Shown in pieces: positions 19,201 through 23,729 of a stretch of DNA of 64,000 nucleotides. Origin of the DNA: Pseudomonas sp. Tri1 (lineage in GTDB: Bacteria > Pseudomonadota > Gammaproteobacteria > Pseudomonadales > Pseudomonadaceae); NCBI RefSeq assembly GCF_017968885.1, contig NZ_CP072913.1:6178501-6242500 (forward strand), written 5' to 3'. The translations under genes were made by a program, and so were the position numbers. The notes beneath the pieces were generated by a model. It ran no database searches and had not been told where the DNA came from. It was given only the letters and a program-made list of their open reading frames with translations. The stretch's first letter is position 1. Each line of letters starts with the position of its first letter.

Positions 19201-19699
19201 CGGCCGACTTCTTGTGGGCGTCGAGCTTGGGCAACTTCGGCGACGAATCCGGATACGGATTGGGCTTGAGCATCTCCCGGGCCCGCGCATAGCCCTCCTT
19301 GAGCAACGTATCGCGGTGTTCACGCACCGCCAACGGCCAGCGCGGATCATCGAACACACCAGGTTCCGGCTCCAGCGAAACGTTGGCGTTGATCAGCGAA
19401 GTGCCGCCCAGGCCACAACCGACCACCACGTTCTGCTGGGCGTTGACGTGCAGGTCGAACAGCCCGGTGCGCGAACCGATATGACCCTCCGGATCATGCA
19501 CCTGCAGCTCCTCAGTAGCCGCAAGCATGGTGTTGGGGTATTCGCCGGGCTGGATCTCCCGGCCACGCTCCAGCAGGCACACCTTGCGCCCCGCTCGGGA
19601 CAGGCGTGAGGCGGCAATACCGCCGCCATAGCCCGAACCAATGACGATAACGTCGTAATGCTCCTGGATGTCGCTGATGGGGGTCGAGATTCGTGTCAT
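16247..19699 (-). CDS. GMC oxidoreductase fused to an alpha/beta hydrolase
   Basis: 1150 aa. GAGAGGA lies 7 nt before the ATG at 19699, so the in-frame TTG at 19705 is rejected. Residues 15-570 are a cholesterol-oxidase-type GMC flavoenzyme: FAD motif GSGYGGG (21-27), HPLGGC with His492, and NPLLTIS with Asn542. A Cys-x2-Cys-x2-Cys-x3-Cys motif (201, 204, 207, 211) resembles an iron-sulfur ligand set. Residues 570-800 are a linker domain I do not recognise. Residues 810-1150 are an alpha/beta hydrolase: HGLG oxyanion motif (843-846), nucleophile elbow VVHCYGA with Cys922 in place of Ser, acid near Asp1088, and His1123 in GYGHIDC. No signal peptide is visible. It likely hydrolyses an ester or lactone and oxidises the alcohol; the substrate is unknown. 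Confidence 0.82.
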   Translation of the reverse strand: MTRISTPISDIQEHYDVIVIGSGYGGGIAASRLSRAGRKVCLLERGREIQPGEYPNTMLAATEELQVHDPEGHIGSRTGLFDLHVNAQQNVVVGCGLGGTSLINANVSLEPEPGVFDDPRWPLAVREHRDTLLKEGYARAREMLKPNPYPDSSPKLPKLDAHKKSADYLKQGAHFYKPPINVTFDKLPNNLNHVGVEQLPCNGCGDCVSGCNNKAKNTTLMNYLPDAWNHGAEIFCQAEVRHLERDGDGWIVHFQYLDSGREMFSAPTLFVRADIVVVSAGTLGSTEIMLRSRDKGLAMSSQLGENMSGNGDILGFGHNCDQTINGIGFGAHSAKELEPVGPCITSIIDMRTEGDRRSRMVIEEGSIPGALGRPMVPSMAAFAEMIGVPTDTGFGASLKYKGREAESFLRGPYHGALHNMQTYLIMSHDNGEGRMVLDNKDQLRIDWPGVGEQENVTLGNERLHQCTKALGGIWVENPIWTKLLKHSIVSVHPLGGCVMGEDATQGVVNHKGQVFSGASGTDVYPGLYVSDGAVIPTSLAVNPLLTISAVSERNMGLLAADRGWIIDYTLPSAPRKPVAAPTLGVQFTETMKGYFSTAFTQPQGTDLKVYEAAAKRGKADNSSIEFTLTITAADLNRLIKEPEHAATLVGTLDAPLLSPKPLVASNGVFNLFEQYQEQVGVRHMNYDMKLTAEDGSDYYFSAFKTVPEDDGVLNIWPDTSTLYVTLYRGPDKSGAVIGSGVMHILPADFAKQMTTMKVLNARNERERVEALARFGKFFAGILWESYGGVFAGDIYFNPDAPPRLKRPLDAPAPTVHFFQTEDNVELRLTRYQAGTKGPVMLVHGLGVGSNIFSTDTIQTNLLEYLCKHEYDVWLLDLRVSILLPASKHEWNGDQVAQYDFKAAIEQIQQATLARDVQCVVHCYGATTFFMSMLAGLQGVRSVVCSQIAADTVVATATGLKAGLHLPGMLDAIGIKSLTAYADTKENWFNKLYDKALNGYARIEAQGYCTNPVCHRITFMYASLYRHDTLNETLHDNLHELFGESNMHTFEHLALIVRKGHLVDFKGNDVYMPHFDRLKLPICFISGADNQCYLPQSTLKTYERLCDMHGPQLFSRHEVPGYGHIDCIFGKDAVVDVYPLILEHLEKTALG

Positions 19700-19838
19700 G
19701 TTCAAGTCCTCTCAGGCAGATGGGGCAACTCTGCGGTTGCCTGCAAATTGACAGGCGCACGAACGCCTGGCCGCTATCCCTCGGGGGCGAGCGGCAGTAA
19801 GCGGTATTACGGAGGAAACTCAGGTATTGATCAGGGCG

Positions 19839-19961
19839 CTATAGCCGCGCACGCTGGTTGACGGCGCGTCGGCGAGGGCGCTTGGGCAGCGAGGTGGGAC
19901 GCGTCGGAACGCACGTCATAGGAGAAAACAAATAGGTGCGGGGGGGCTGGCTATCCATCAT
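19839..19961 (-). CDS. Possible small Arg/Pro-rich ORF (40 codons)
   Basis: The frame starts ATGATG at 19961 with AGGGAGA about 6 nt upstream and stops at TAG. The product (MMDSQPPRTYLFSPMTC...) is basic, with a PKRPRRRAVNQRARL tail. It sits 140 bp upstream of the GMC-hydrolase gene on the same strand and could be a leader peptide or chance. I recognise no family; the ribosome-binding site is the only positive evidence. Confidence 0.2.
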   Translation of the reverse strand: MMDSQPPRTYLFSPMTCVPTRPTSLPKRPRRRAVNQRARL

Positions 19962-20117
19962 GCGTTCTCCCTGAACCTGATATGGATAAAATCGCGTTGT
20001 GTCCTTGTGCCATGAGTGAAGACAGGTGACAGACCCACGTCAAGGCAGCTACTTAGAAGTGTATGAAATTTGATCTATCGCGTTTTGAACTAAGCCCGCC
20101 GGGGCCTACAGCCTTTC

Positions 20118-20163
20118 GCAAACAAGTTATCCACATGGCCACCCACAGCAAATGGGGACAAGT
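20118..20163 (+). repeat. DnaA-box repeat, most diverged copy
   Basis: CAAACAAG followed by TTATCCACA (20127-20135) and then CCCACAGCAAATGGGGACAA. Same layout as the better-conserved copies: AACA, box, CACAG, TGxGG, AA. Confidence 0.55.
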
Positions 20164-20294
20164 GCCTCGACCGTCGGATTTTTCTTTCGATAAAGCCAAG
20201 AAAAACCGTGACTTATGAACAATGACGGTTTTTACGGCGCGCAGGTCAATTATTGATCAGATGCCTGAAAGGCTTGCCAGGCCTGGGGTGTGGA

Positions 20295-20343
20295 GGACAG
20301 CGAACACCTTATCCACAGAAGCGCCAACAGTGTTTGGGGGTAA
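20295..20343 (+). repeat. DnaA-box repeat, copy A
   Basis: Contains a perfect TTATCCACA at 20309-20317. Its first 36 bp match copy B at 35 positions; the similarity is weaker further upstream, which starts near a TGATCA. Confidence 0.75.
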
Positions 20344-20476
20344 TTCTGATGATTCTGTGGAAAACCTCTTTAACGGCTTATAAATCGGGGTTCCGCTGGG
20401 ATTTATCGGGTAAAAACAAGGAACTGATCATTTAATGATCAATTCATTGAAAGCCTCGCTCCGTATGGCTTGTAGA

Positions 20477-20526
20477 GGACAGCGAACATCTTATCCACAG
20501 AAGCGCCAACAGAGATTGGGGGCAAG
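20477..20526 (+). repeat. DnaA-box repeat, copy B
   Basis: Perfect TTATCCACA at 20491-20499, exactly 182 bp after the box of copy A. Nearly identical to copy A over GGACAGCGAACA, the box, and AAGCGCCAACAG. Confidence 0.75.
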
Positions 20527-20637
20527 TATGGGGCTGCGCCCAAGCTTATTCACAAATAAAACCCAGTAAAAACCGTGGGTTAGGCTGGTTGTTTTTTAAG
20601 CGCTCGCTTGGAGGGCCTGATCTGCGTGGGGTGTGGC

Positions 20638-20685
20638 GAGGGGCGAACAGGTTATCCACAGAGGCGCACACAGGGAATGTGGGTA
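20638..20685 (+). repeat. DnaA-box repeat, copy C
   Basis: Perfect TTATCCACA at 20652-20660. Its CGAACAGG, box and GAGGCGC/CACAG core is identical to copy D at 29 of 30 positions. Confidence 0.75.
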
Positions 20686-20696
20686 AACGCATAACC

Positions 20697-20790
20697 CCTG
20701 TGGGAGCGAGCTTGCTCGCGATGATCGACTAGCCGTCACCCTCATCGTTACCTGACAGACCGCTATGGCGAGCAAGCTCGCTCCCACAGG
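20697..20790. repeat. REP inverted pair
   Basis: Tail-to-tail REP copies (CTGTGGGAGCGAGCTTGCTC, then GAGCAAGCTCGCTCCCACAG) between DnaA-box copy C and the acetyltransferase gene. Confidence 0.9.
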
Positions 20791-20824
20791 AGTCTCTTGG
20801 CTTCAGAACAACCCGCCGTGACGG

Positions 20825-21391
20825 TTAAGGCCGATGCATCAGATACGCCTCCCCCGTCACCCGAATCATCGGATGCGGGACAACCTGGCAGGTTTTGACG
20901 ATGCCAAAGCCATGGCGCTCATAAAAGCGTCGGGCACCGGTGTTCGCGGCATAGTCGATCAGGCTCAGGCCATTGAGTGCCAGTTGATCGGCACGCTGTT
21001 GCGCCCGCTCGAGAAAGCGCACGCCGAGCCCCTTGTTACGCCAGCCTTCATGCAGGGCCAGGCTCGATATATAGAGGGTATCGGGGACCTCCATGTCGGC
21101 GTAGGGCGCCAGGATCGGATCAGTGACGGGAGCCGCCAGCGGATCCTCACGCGTCACGTAACAGTGCATCATGCCGATGACCCGGCCATCGGCCTGGGCA
21201 ACAAGACAATTCTGGTAGGAAAAATCGACATTTTCTCGGGCGTAACGAGCAGCCCCCACCTCCAGGAGGTCCTGCCCCGGCTCCGCCAACTGGCTCCAGA
21301 TGTAATCCGACGCGCCCTCTGAGGAAATCCGGAATAGACGAGCGATCTCGCGGGTATCCGTGGGCAAGGCCGGGCGAAATTCAACTTCCAT
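20825..21391 (-). CDS. GNAT-family N-acetyltransferase
   Basis: 188 aa from MEVEFRPALP. The GNAT acetyl-CoA site is in ISSLALHEGWRNKGLGVRFLERA (about residues 116-138), and the C-terminal ANTGARRFYERHGF segment is typical of the fold. An upstream in-frame Met would add 21 residues with no family support. It stands alone between the DnaA-box repeats, with copy C downstream and copy D upstream. Acceptor unknown. Confidence 0.85.
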   Translation of the reverse strand: MEVEFRPALPTDTREIARLFRISSEGASDYIWSQLAEPGQDLLEVGAARYARENVDFSYQNCLVAQADGRVIGMMHCYVTREDPLAAPVTDPILAPYADMEVPDTLYISSLALHEGWRNKGLGVRFLERAQQRADQLALNGLSLIDYAANTGARRFYERHGFGIVKTCQVVPHPMIRVTGEAYLMHRP

Positions 21392-21547
21392 CGATGTAGC
21401 TCCGTTAGCGATCAAAGGCATTTTTTCACGCGCAGATCTGAGGCCCGACAACACGCCGGACCAGCGGTTTTATGGCCGGATGTTGCAGCAGGTCAGACTG
21501 ATCATTTTTTGAACGCGGCCTTGAAAGGCCTGATTGGCGCGGTGTCC

Positions 21548-21599
21548 GGACAGGGCCGAACAGGTTATCCACAGAGGCGCGCACAGCGATTGTGAATAA
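21548..21599 (+). repeat. DnaA-box repeat, copy D
   Basis: Perfect TTATCCACA at 21565-21573 within GGACAGGGCCGAACAGG and GAGGCGCGCACAG. It is preceded by TGATCA and the TTTTTTGAACGC and GGCCTGATTGG stretches, also seen in diverged form upstream of copy C. Confidence 0.75.
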
Positions 21600-21610
21600 A
21601 CCTGAATGCC

Positions 21611-21705
21611 CCTGTGGGGGCAAGCTTGCTCGCGATGACGGACCAGCAGTCGCCATCATCGCCAGCCGACAGACCGCTATCGCGAGCAAGCTCGCCCCCA
21701 CAGGG
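21611..21705. repeat. REP inverted pair
   Basis: Tail-to-tail REP copies with a G-for-A variant (GTGGGGGCAAGCTTGCTCGC), between DnaA-box copy D and the ETF beta gene. Confidence 0.88.
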
Positions 21706-21724
21706 ATTCAAGGTGATTCTGGAC

Positions 21725-22495
21725 TCAGCGAACCACCCCTTCCTCAACCAGCAACTTGAGAATCGCCTCGGCGCCCGCCTCCGGGCTCAGGCCCTTGAGC
21801 ACTTGCCCGCCTCCACCGCTGGCCTTGGCCGTGGCGGCCTTCATGCGGTCCGCGCCGCTCTTGGCCTTGATCACTTTCAGGCGTTTGGGACGTGGCTTGG
21901 CCGGTTGCAGGGTCGCCACTGCCAACAAGGTGTCATCGACAACCTCAACCTCTTCAGCGTGCAAGGCGCCGCGCCGCGCCGGGCCGTAGGCACTTTGCCG
22001 AGGTTTCGGTGCGGCGTTATCCACAGTGGCCAGGAATGGCAGGCGTACTTTGAGACGGCGCCGTTGGCCACGGGGCAAGGCTTGCAGCACCAAGGCCACG
22101 CCGTTGTCGATGGATTCGACCTGAGCCAACCCCACCACCAGCGGCCAGCCAAGGTTTTCCGCCAACAGAAATGGGAGCATGCCCGAGCCTTCACCGGTTT
22201 CCGCCTGGCTGCCGGTGAGCACCACTTGGGCGCCAACGTCGCGCAGGTAATCGGTCAGGGCCGGCAGTGCGTCGGCGCCCGCAGGGTTTTCCAACACATG
22301 GAGTTCGTCCAGGCCCATGCCCAAATAGGCGCGCAGGGCCGGTTCGGCCACGTCGCCGGCGTGCAGCACTTGCAGGTCATTGCCGGCCAGTTGCAGGCCC
22401 AGTTCCACAGCCCGGGCATCCTGCTCGGCACGGCGGGGCCGACCGGAGGTGGGGTGGGCGCCGATGGATACGAGGCTGATCACTTGGGTACTCAT
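21725..22495 (-). CDS. etfB: Electron transfer flavoprotein beta subunit (dimethylglycine type)
   Basis: 256 aa from MSTQVISLVSIGAHP. ETF beta family: adenine-nucleotide-binding N-terminal fold, the TGSQAETGEGSGMLPFLLAE segment, and a C-terminal tail that pairs with ETF alpha. With ETF alpha it should carry electrons from dimethylglycine dehydrogenase to the quinone pool. Last gene of the operon, overlapping etfA by a few bases around 22495-22509 or nearly so. A perfect DnaA box lies inside the gene at 22017-22025. Confidence 0.85.
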   Translation of the reverse strand: MSTQVISLVSIGAHPTSGRPRRAEQDARAVELGLQLAGNDLQVLHAGDVAEPALRAYLGMGLDELHVLENPAGADALPALTDYLRDVGAQVVLTGSQAETGEGSGMLPFLLAENLGWPLVVGLAQVESIDNGVALVLQALPRGQRRRLKVRLPFLATVDNAAPKPRQSAYGPARRGALHAEEVEVVDDTLLAVATLQPAKPRPKRLKVIKAKSGADRMKAATAKASGGGGQVLKGLSPEAGAEAILKLLVEEGVVR

Positions 22496-22508
22496 CAACT
22501 TGTCCTTC

Positions 22509-23729
22509 TTAAGCCGCATCGCGCTTGGCTTCGTTGCGGTAAGCCTCTACCGCCGCGATCAAGGCCTGGAGAATCGCCGCACTGTCGCCGATCACCGACA
22601 GGTCTGCCCGTTTGATCATGTCGCAGCCCGGGTCGAGGTTGATCGCCACCACCTTGTCGCAGGCACCGATGCCTTGCAGGTGCTGGATCGCCCCGGAAAT
22701 CCCTACGGCCACGTAGACCCGCGCCGTGACCCAGGTGCCGGACGCGCCGACCTGACGGTCGCGGGCCATGAAACCATCGTCCACCGCCACCCGCGAGGCG
22801 CCTTCGGTGGCGCCCAGGGCCGCAGCGGTTTTGTGGAAAAGATCCCAGTCCTTGACCCCGTTACCGCCGGAGAAAATGAATTCGGCTTCGGCCATCGGGA
22901 TCGCCCCCGGGTCCACCGCCACCGCGCCAAGATCCTCAATGCGCGACAAACTGCGCGCCACACTTGTGGATAACTCCACCGGCAGGGCTTCGTGACGGGT
23001 TTCGCTGACCGGCTCGGCACATTCGGCCGCCGCCAGGATCAAGCGCGCCAATGGCCGGGCCAGGTCTTGCAGGCCGGCACCGGCACGGCCAATGCACTCC
23101 TCGCCCTTGACCTGCCAGACCCGCGTCGCCGGGCGTTCGCCCAGAGCCGCAGCCAGACGCCGGCCCAGCTCACCGCCACCGGTGCGGCTGTCGGGCAGCA
23201 GCCAATGGCGTGGATTGAATTGGTTATCCACAGCCCGCAGGCCCTGCACCCGTTGTTCCGGCGCATAACCGCTGAATTGCTCGCCCGCCAATACCAGCAA
23301 GCGGTCGACACCGGCGGTGGCGAAAGCGTTTTCCTTGTGCTCACCGAAGACCACTGCCAGGACCGCACCGTCGGCACCGGCCAATTGATGGGCCAGGCCT
23401 AGCAGATCGCGGTCGTGACTGCTGAGGCGGCCACCAACCATGTCCGGCACCACACTGATGTAGAACGCTGGTTGTGGCACTTGATGCAGTGGCAGTTGCA
23501 CCTCTGCGGCGGCGGTACGCTTGCTCGCGCCACCCTGCTGGGCACCGCTGCGGTCGATGCGTTTGATGCCGTTGGGGCCGATGAAACCCACACCGTGGAC
23601 ATTCTTGCGGATGACGCCGTTGGGCCCCATCCAGCTGTGTTGCACCGGCTGCATGGCTGCGTGCAGCGGGTGCAGGCGGTTGCGGGCGATCCACTCGGCG
23701 CGAGGGTCGCGGCGGATGATGTCGCTCAT
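22509..23729 (-). CDS. etfA: Electron transfer flavoprotein alpha subunit (dimethylglycine type)
   Basis: 406 aa, longer than housekeeping ETF alpha (about 310) because of an N-terminal region of about 80 residues rich in Gly/Asn/His (HSWMGPNGVIRKNVHG). The FAD domain is at the C terminus: GASGTWVTARVYVAVGISGA, then INLDPGCDMIKRAD in place of the usual acidic loop. The start ATG shares one base with the dgcB stop (TAATG), so translation is coupled. It contains perfect DnaA boxes at 22965-22973 (reverse) and 23224-23232. Probable dedicated partner of DgcAB. Confidence 0.87.
   Translation of the reverse strand: MSDIIRRDPRAEWIARNRLHPLHAAMQPVQHSWMGPNGVIRKNVHGVGFIGPNGIKRIDRSGAQQGGASKRTAAAEVQLPLHQVPQPAFYISVVPDMVGGRLSSHDRDLLGLAHQLAGADGAVLAVVFGEHKENAFATAGVDRLLVLAGEQFSGYAPEQRVQGLRAVDNQFNPRHWLLPDSRTGGGELGRRLAAALGERPATRVWQVKGEECIGRAGAGLQDLARPLARLILAAAECAEPVSETRHEALPVELSTSVARSLSRIEDLGAVAVDPGAIPMAEAEFIFSGGNGVKDWDLFHKTAAALGATEGASRVAVDDGFMARDRQVGASGTWVTARVYVAVGISGAIQHLQGIGACDKVVAINLDPGCDMIKRADLSVIGDSAAILQALIAAVEAYRNEAKRDAA

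What the first reader, a model, noticed from the sequence alone, without database searches (positions are those of the whole stretch)
20118..23232. Cluster of eight perfect DnaA boxes in 3.1 kb, five of them in a diverged repeat: a possible DnaA-titration locus
TTATCCACA occurs at 20127, 20309, 20491, 20652, 21565, 22017 and 23224, and in reverse at 22965. Chance predicts about 0.5 per 64 kb on both strands. I found only one more in the window (32768). The first five lie in a shared repeat of about 50 bp (AACA, box, GCGC..CACAG, TGxGG) in otherwise non-coding DNA. E. coli datA, a DnaA-titrating locus near the origin, holds five boxes in about 1 kb. In P. aeruginosa this gene region is not far from oriC. 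A role in replication timing is inferred.
Basis: partly seen in the sequence, partly recalled or inferred. Interest (0 to 1): 0.72.

Follow-up and report, generated by a model that had tools for sequence, protein, structure and literature searches.

The report
Helix-phased DnaA-box array in Pseudomonas
Half a megabase from the replication origin, this Pseudomonas chromosome carries a conserved non-coding array of recognition sequences for the replication starter protein DnaA, spaced by whole turns of the DNA helix in many species, which likely captures or switches off DnaA so that replication would not start again too early.

Summary
The eight perfect DnaA boxes are real and far above chance. 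The locus is the densest 3.1-kb box cluster in the genome, 510 kb from dnaA. Its core is a ~630-bp non-coding array of four same-strand boxes plus weaker ones. Comparison shows strong selection. (1) 76 of 77 related loci long enough carry at least three of the four boxes; a three-box search finds an array in 200 of 398 genus genomes, reversed control 0. (2) Box spacings fall at 150, 161, 172, 182 and 193 bp (294 of 297 within 1 bp; period ~10.65 bp), with at least 11 class changes on an array tree and 6 on an etfA tree: same-strand boxes stay on one face of the helix. (3) A box inside etfA keeps its nine bases in 80 of 80 loci, using an otherwise rare TTA codon. (4) Its distance from dnaA is 458-598 kb in the 33 genomes measured. 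A REP family, promoter or known RNA fits poorly. Most likely a DnaA-assembly control locus that works like E. coli datA; no IHF consensus is conserved, so I do not file it as datA. DnaA binding and function are untested.

The parts
20061..20692 (+). Core array: non-coding, four perfect same-strand DnaA boxes A-D (spacings 182, 182, 161 bp) with conserved flanks
   Evidence: Conservation over 98-99 arrays begins about 66 bp before box A and fades about 40 bp after box D; no ORF of 90 aa or more between 19706 and 20824
20127..20135 (+). DnaA box A, TTATCCACA
20213..20221 (+). Weak site A' (TTATGAACA here; commonest form elsewhere TTATCCAGA), 86 bp = 8.04 turns after box A
   Evidence: 7 or more of 9 bases in 90% of 67 arrays; own letters
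20309..20317 (+). DnaA box B, TTATCCACA
20356..20364 (-). Inverted consensus box TTTTCCACA, 47 bp after box B
   Evidence: present in 76 of 76 arrays with 182-bp B-C spacing
20491..20499 (+). DnaA box C, TTATCCACA
20546..20554 (+). Box C' TTATTCACA, 55 bp = 5.1 turns after C; degenerate in many relatives, perfect in a few
   Evidence: 7 or more of 9 bases in 60% of 57 arrays with 161-bp C-D spacing, perfect in 5
20652..20660 (+). DnaA box D, TTATCCACA
20695..20790 (.). REP-like inverted repeat next to box D
   Evidence: I3, D4
20825..21391 (-). GNAT acetyltransferase gene, a variable neighbour between array and etfB
   Evidence: Pfam PF00583; a relative found in 36 of 70 loci
21491..21601 (+). 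Unit E, second copy of unit D with perfect box at 21565-21573 and inverted TTATTCACA at 21591-21599
   Evidence: (D2, 77% to unit D)
21609..21704 (.). REP-like repeat next to unit E, 85% identical to the one next to D
   Evidence: D4, I1
22017..22025 (+). DnaA box inside etfB
   Evidence: same place in 68 of 80 loci
22965..22973 (-). DnaA box inside etfA, codons 253-255 TTA TCC ACA
   Evidence: 80 of 80 loci
23224..23232 (+). DnaA box inside etfA, codons 166-169
   Evidence: 79 of 80 loci
21725..22519 (-). etfB-like gene (electron transfer flavoprotein)
   Evidence: PF01012
22509..23729 (-). etfA-like gene
   Evidence: PF00766, PF01012
16247..19705 (-). GMC oxidoreductase-like gene beyond box A
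   Evidence: PF00732, PF05199; next to the array in 34 of 70 loci

Best explanation
This is a conserved non-coding array of DnaA-box sequences about 0.5 Mb from oriC, which likely assembles DnaA into an ordered complex on one face of the helix and would thereby restrain re-initiation soon after the fork has passed. Shown: the sequence, its uniqueness in the genome, its conservation, spacing in whole helical turns, its distance from dnaA where measured, and the selection on a box inside etfA. Inferred: DnaA binds; each strong box (TTATCCACA), with weaker neighbours (AACA ending 2 bp before it, ACAG at +18 to +21, and an inverted degenerate box at +26 such as TTGCCCCCA or TTACCCACA), nucleates a small DnaA oligomer; the four or more oligomers, 14-18 turns apart and facing the same way, touch each other by looping or wrapping the DNA. 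When the locus is copied early in the cycle, the number of these complexes doubles and DnaA is drawn from the new origins, either by holding it or by promoting ATP hydrolysis. Boxes in etfA and etfB would extend the sink. No SeqA was found in the genome, so sequestration as in E. coli is not expected and a DnaA sink may weigh more.
For: Eight perfect boxes in 3.1 kb; 0 of 20,000 random placements at the local box density reach eight. Extended module found 5 times in the genome, all here. Array in 200 of 398 genus genomes, reversed control 0; 76 of 77 long-enough loci with 3 or more boxes. Spacing quantised: 294 of 297 gaps within 1 bp of 150/161/172/182/193 (282 of 285 counting identical arrays once), expected 29% if uniform; best period 10.65 bp; at least 11 class changes on an array tree and 6 on an etfA tree. 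Same-strand sites at whole turns, inverted ones nearer half turns; inverted TTTTCCACA 76 of 76. TTA-TCC-ACA in etfA 80 of 80; TTA serves only 11 of the other 2632 leucines; 0 of 15 family etfA genes without the array beside etf have either box. Distance to dnaA 458-598 kb in 33 genomes, in one of them on the other arm. Distance to flanking genes varies while the array stays intact. A separate cluster in sister genus g12 also steps by 11 bp: 113 or 123/124 bp in 11 pairs from 8 of 18 genomes.
Against: No binding or functional data. 198 of 398 sampled genus genomes lack the exact three-box pattern and 8 of 19 lack the module altogether, so the locus is dispensable in the genus. No IHF consensus is enriched (72 hits against 57 in one shuffle per array). 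Titration and ATP hydrolysis cannot be told apart from sequence, nor a restraining from an activating (DARS-like) role. My limits on spacing (and the pattern, through which 30 of the 110 loci came) excluded some spacings by design. The genomes measured for distance were mostly picked for a high contig coordinate, and 18 of 20 others tried could not be measured. The 80 EtfA loci are the closest 80 of 559, which helps conservation.
Confidence: 0.55

Rival explanations
1. An activating DARS-like locus: DnaA-ADP assembles on the array and is recharged to DnaA-ATP, so the locus promotes the next initiation.
For: Opposed sites occur (strong box with inverted site 26 bp on; inverted TTTTCCACA 47 bp after B); DARS cores hold three boxes with I and II opposed (PMC8682772 passages).
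Against: Position close to oriC and the row of same-strand strong boxes resemble datA more; the geometry of DARS boxes I-III was not compared base by base.
Confidence: 0.17
2. A passive DnaA reservoir only: the boxes just add affinity near oriC, with no ordered complex.
For: Boxes are enriched toward oriC genome-wide (46, 26, 20, 18, 8, 12, 3, 1, 1, 1 per tenth of the arms), as reported for E. coli (PMC12371093 abstract and passages); boxes in etf genes are conserved too.
Against: Whole-turn spacing changes and conserved weak sites and flanks are not needed for passive binding.
Confidence: 0.13
3. A second replication origin or remnant of one; P. aeruginosa has two autonomously replicating fragments, of which only one is essential (passages of PMC4403523).
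For: Box array in AT-richer DNA (GC 38-54% in 100-bp steps over 20050-20649 against 62% in the window).
Against: No minus-to-plus GC-skew switch; dnaA is 510 kb away; spacing of 150-193 bp is unlike a compact origin. I could not learn where the second P. aeruginosa fragment lies (papers not held).
Confidence: 0.06
4. A DnaA-controlled promoter region of a neighbouring gene (GMC oxidoreductase, GNAT or etf operon).
For: Array lies upstream of the GMC gene; in the 34 loci that have it, box A is 375-433 bp from its start.
Against: No GMC relative was found in the other 36 of 70 loci; the gap to etfB varies from 67 to 4130 bp; conservation stops about 66 bp before box A.
Confidence: 0.05
5. A repeat family without function (REP-like or mobile).
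For: REP-like elements flank it (20695-20790, 21609-21704) and unit D plus REP is duplicated.
Against: Module occurs nowhere else in the genome; one array per matching genome in the table; box letters and phase are conserved while spacers drift.
Confidence: 0.02

Closest known systems
E. coli datA (DnaA-ATP hydrolysing and titrating locus)
   Same: Non-coding cluster of about five DnaA boxes, on an arm close to oriC, relative distance kept among strains; strong and weak boxes mixed (PMC4585315, PMC10950094 passages)
   Different: No enriched IHF consensus; other neighbours; boxes 150-193 bp apart in whole turns, with boxes also in nearby coding sequence; sequences of the two loci were not aligned
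E. coli DARS1 / DARS2
   Same: Non-coding DnaA-box loci with opposed boxes (PMC8682772 passages)
   Different: Here several strong same-strand boxes in a row, nearer to oriC; Fis sites not looked for, IHF consensus not enriched
DnaA-box clusters near oriC of Streptomyces coelicolor and Bacillus subtilis
   Same: Clusters close to oriC said to repress untimely initiation (named in PMC4585315, passage)
   Different: Other phyla; helical spacing and conservation not compared
Ori-proximal DnaA-box enrichment in E. coli and Salmonella
   Same: Genome-wide gradient of boxes toward oriC (PMC12371093, abstract and passages)
   Different: A gradient, not a discrete phased array; the word Pseudomonas does not occur in that main text

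Membership tests
datA | Non-coding cluster of DnaA boxes on an arm near oriC | tested here: met
   five perfect boxes at 20127-21573 outside genes, 510 kb from dnaA
datA | IHF-binding site between essential boxes | tested here: not met
   WATCAANNNNTTR with up to one mismatch: 72 hits in 99 arrays against 57 in one shuffle each; a perfect match in 1 array against 3 shuffles. Weak or non-consensus sites are not excluded
datA | Promotes DnaA-ATP hydrolysis | not testable with these tools
   needs biochemistry
datA | Loss gives untimely or asynchronous initiation | not testable with these tools
   needs a deletion strain
DARS | Core of three boxes with I and II opposed | tested here: inconclusive
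   Opposed sites exist, but the DARS core spacing was not compared
Second origin (ARS) | GC-skew switch from minus to plus | tested here: not met
Second origin (ARS) | Autonomous replication | not testable with these tools
   needs a plasmid assay
REP / mobile repeat family | Many dispersed copies | tested here: not met
   module 5 copies, all in this locus
DnaA-regulated promoter | Fixed place relative to one gene | tested here: not met
   within the 34 loci that have the GMC gene its distance is fairly constant
Known structured RNA | Match to an Rfam family | tested here: not met
   0 matches at gathering score in 19600-21800

The most novel reading that the evidence does not exclude
Pseudomonas times replication with its own class of control locus, unrelated by descent to datA or DARS: a helix-phased array in which DnaA oligomers on one face of 0.5 kb of DNA fold it into a multi-loop particle. 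The particle counts DnaA or switches it off, takes the place of SeqA sequestration, and has been built anew at another ori-proximal site in a sister genus with the same module and the same whole-turn rule.
Probability: 0.35. Interest if true: 0.85.

Novelty: new variant of a known kind. Interest (0 to 1): 0.72.

Why it matters
How bacteria without SeqA avoid re-firing the origin is not well understood, and DnaA control loci have been dissected mainly in E. coli (my general knowledge). This gives a short, unique, deletable element in a widely used genus, with sharp predictions about phase. It also shows selection reaching into protein-coding sequence to keep a DnaA box, and offers a natural experiment (spacing changes of one, two or three turns) on the geometry of DnaA complexes.

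Tried and rejected
IHF sites: no enrichment. Known RNA: none at gathering score. Promoter of a neighbour: distances vary. REP or mobile family: rejected, though REP-like repeats flank the array. Second origin: no skew switch. Box conservation merely by protein constraint: rejected for etfA codons 253-255, because codons as well as residues are fixed; for the box at codons 166-169 the case is weaker (codon 166 varies in two loci, codon 168 in one). Order-wide search for the module: 1 of 115 genomes, our own; the 111 outside the family have none. Ten paper searches, several with capped listings and all in an open-licence library only, listed no paper that by title or abstract start describes such an array in Pseudomonas; I saw listings, and passages of seven papers. 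The 1990 and 2006 papers on two P. aeruginosa origins are not held, so a relative of this locus may have been cloned then.

Rows dropped: of 110 loci (L059-L168) 99 gave a full four-box array under my limits (A-B 145-195, B-C 165-195, C-D 145-165 bp); 95 of the 99 are distinct sequences. Of the other 11, L094 and L118 have C-D of 171-172 bp (fits the series but outside my limit), L103, L114, L126 and L145 lack one box, L085 is cut by its contig end, L105, L136 and L137 end before the array, and L119 has none. Distance to dnaA: 30 of 38 apparently complete genus genomes that I picked from the list, mostly for a high coordinate on contig 1, plus our own; for the other 8 I had no exact contig length. 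As a check on that choice I took the first 3 kb of contig 1 of 20 further listed genomes; only 2 begin at dnaA, and both fit (500 and 522 kb). The remaining 18 are unmeasured. A list of spans typed by eye inside one search was not used.
Full report
Observation. The window is 6178501-6242500 of a single 6.71-Mb contig with dnaA at its start, so the cluster is 510 kb from dnaA. The genome has 136 perfect boxes against 19 for the reversed pattern, and they thin out away from the origin: 46, 26, 20, 18, 8, 12, 3, 1, 1, 1 per tenth of the two arms. In 3.1 kb the locus has 8; the best stretch elsewhere, next to oriC, has 6. With 26 boxes scattered over the 671 kb of the same tenth, 0 of 20,000 trials reach eight in 3.1 kb.

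Anatomy. Four perfect same-strand boxes A-D lie 182, 182 and 161 bp apart in DNA without an ORF of 90 aa, between a GMC oxidoreductase gene and a GNAT gene. A fifth (21565) lies in a second copy of unit D beyond the GNAT gene; D and this copy E are each followed by a REP-like repeat. Boxes also lie in etfB (22017) and etfA (22965, 23224). Over 99 arrays from related genomes units B-D read, with differences, T-tract and GATCAA, later GCGAACA, 2 bp, TTATCCACA, then ACAG at +18 to +21, then an inverted degenerate box at +26; unit A is more diverged. An inverted consensus box TTTTCCACA stands 47 bp after B in 76 of 76 arrays with 182-bp B-C spacing; a weaker same-strand box stands at A+86 (7 or more of 9 bases in 90% of 67) and, in arrays with 161-bp C-D spacing, at C+55 (60% of 57). 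Conservation begins about 66 bp before A.

Conservation. Eighty loci of other Pseudomonas were fetched by EtfA, the best 80 of 559. Of 77 whose DNA reaches far enough, 76 have at least three boxes of the array and one (L119) has none. A search for three boxes with loose spacing finds a match in 200 of 398 genus genomes, one each in the table, and none with the reversed pattern. The extended module AACANNTTATCCACANNNNNNNNMACAG occurs five times in our genome, all here; in a family sample 24 of 148 genomes have it, among them 11 of 19 of the genus with 3-5 copies each; in an order sample only our own of 115. The 8 genus members of that family sample without it have 4.1-5.4 Mb, the 11 with it 5.7-7.0 Mb; three complete ones without it have 16-41 perfect boxes.

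Helical phase. The 297 A-B, B-C and C-D gaps of the 99 arrays fall into five classes, 150, 161, 172, 182 and 193 bp; 294 are within 1 bp of one of these (282 of 285 with identical arrays counted once), where a uniform spread over 145-195 would give 29%. The best period is 10.65 bp. On a quick tree of etfA genes (70 loci) the classes changed at least 6 times, on a tree of the arrays themselves (99) at least 11 times, so the rule is not one inherited length. Weak same-strand sites keep the same face (8.0 and 5.1 turns) while inverted sites lie at 2.4, 3.4 and 4.4 turns. In sister genus g12 a different cluster, about 38-49 kb from dnaA in the three genomes whose dnaA was located, holds modules of the same build; in 8 of 18 genomes 11 pairs are 113 (3), 123 (1) or 124 (7) bp apart although 100-130 was allowed.

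Selection inside genes. EtfA codons 253-255 are TTA TCC ACA in 80 of 80 loci; TTA serves only 11 of the other 2632 leucine codons in those genes. Of 214 columns with fixed residue (79 of 80 or more) and at least four-fold degeneracy only 11 have a fixed codon, four of them in the two boxes; the boxes make two of the three runs of three or more fixed codons. A relative of another genus with boxes at the same place (G518) keeps TTA TCC ACA; 15 family etfA genes without the array beside etf have neither box (two of these 15 do have a single box near etfB).

Position and context. In 31 genomes (30 plus our own) the array lies 458-598 kb from dnaA, median 529 kb; in the 21 with exact length, 7.1-9.9% of the chromosome. 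These were mostly picked for a high contig coordinate; a later check of 20 other listed genomes gave 2 that could be measured, 500 kb (9.4%) and 522 kb (8.2%), the second on the other arm and in the other orientation, as after an inversion around the origin. Flanking genes change: the GMC gene is beside 34 of 70 arrays, the gap to etfB runs from 67 to 4130 bp. So the element seems to be kept for itself and near a fixed distance from the origin.

What it does. The boxes match the high-affinity box given for E. coli and P. putida (PMC4285127, passages). From this I infer DnaA binding; it is not shown. Phase argues for contacts among DnaA groups 14-18 turns apart. E. coli datA, at 94.7 min, has boxes and an IHF site in non-coding DNA near oriC, and its relative distance is kept among strains (PMC10950094, PMC4585315; passages); that oriC is at about 84.6 min is recalled. 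The likeness in place and build makes a restraining role the best guess. The IHF consensus is not enriched, so membership in datA is not claimed. SeqA was not found in the genome, while the control E. coli rang; a second DnaA-family protein of 243 aa is probably Hda (name recalled). Rivals and their tests are listed above; the main open question is sink, hydrolysis or recharging.

Limits. E. coli datA was not aligned with this array. The array tree is built from the arrays, so its count is less independent than that of the etfA tree. Thirty of the 110 loci came through the pattern, which itself limits B-C to 172-202 and C-D to 140-170 bp.

Noticed in passing
L215 8966-10623; L216 9168-10448; L217 9154-12053; L218 9388-11001: Sister genus g12 has another dense DnaA-box cluster (14-18 perfect boxes per 19 kb), in L215 between a thioesterase-like gene and a copper-chaperone-like gene (names guessed from the translations), with pairs 124 or 113 bp apart.
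   Followed up: partly
own genome C1:780850, 781052, 666047, 5833902: Four boxes elsewhere carry the same kind of neighbours (CACAG about 12 bp on, inverted degenerate box), as if lone modules of the same DnaA platform.
   Followed up: partly
20578-20790 and 21491-21704: Unit D plus its REP-like repeat is duplicated on both sides of the GNAT gene, 77-85% identical, which suggests how the gene came in between array and etfB.
   Followed up: partly
own genome C1:5042675-5042697: Two perfect boxes in opposed orientation only 14 bp apart (start to start), the closest pair among the 136.
   Followed up: no
G205 contig C1, array at 521974 (-), dnaA at about 197 (+): The array lies on the other arm and in the other orientation but still 522 kb from dnaA, as after an inversion around the origin.
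   Followed up: partly
whole genome: DnaA boxes fall from 46 to 1 per tenth of the arms from origin to terminus; the three complete genus genomes without the array that I counted have only 16-41 boxes.
   Followed up: partly
20192-20240 and 20559-20600: Between boxes A-B and C-D lie partly conserved AAAAACC...GGTT stretches that might form hairpins (by eye); function unknown.
   Followed up: no
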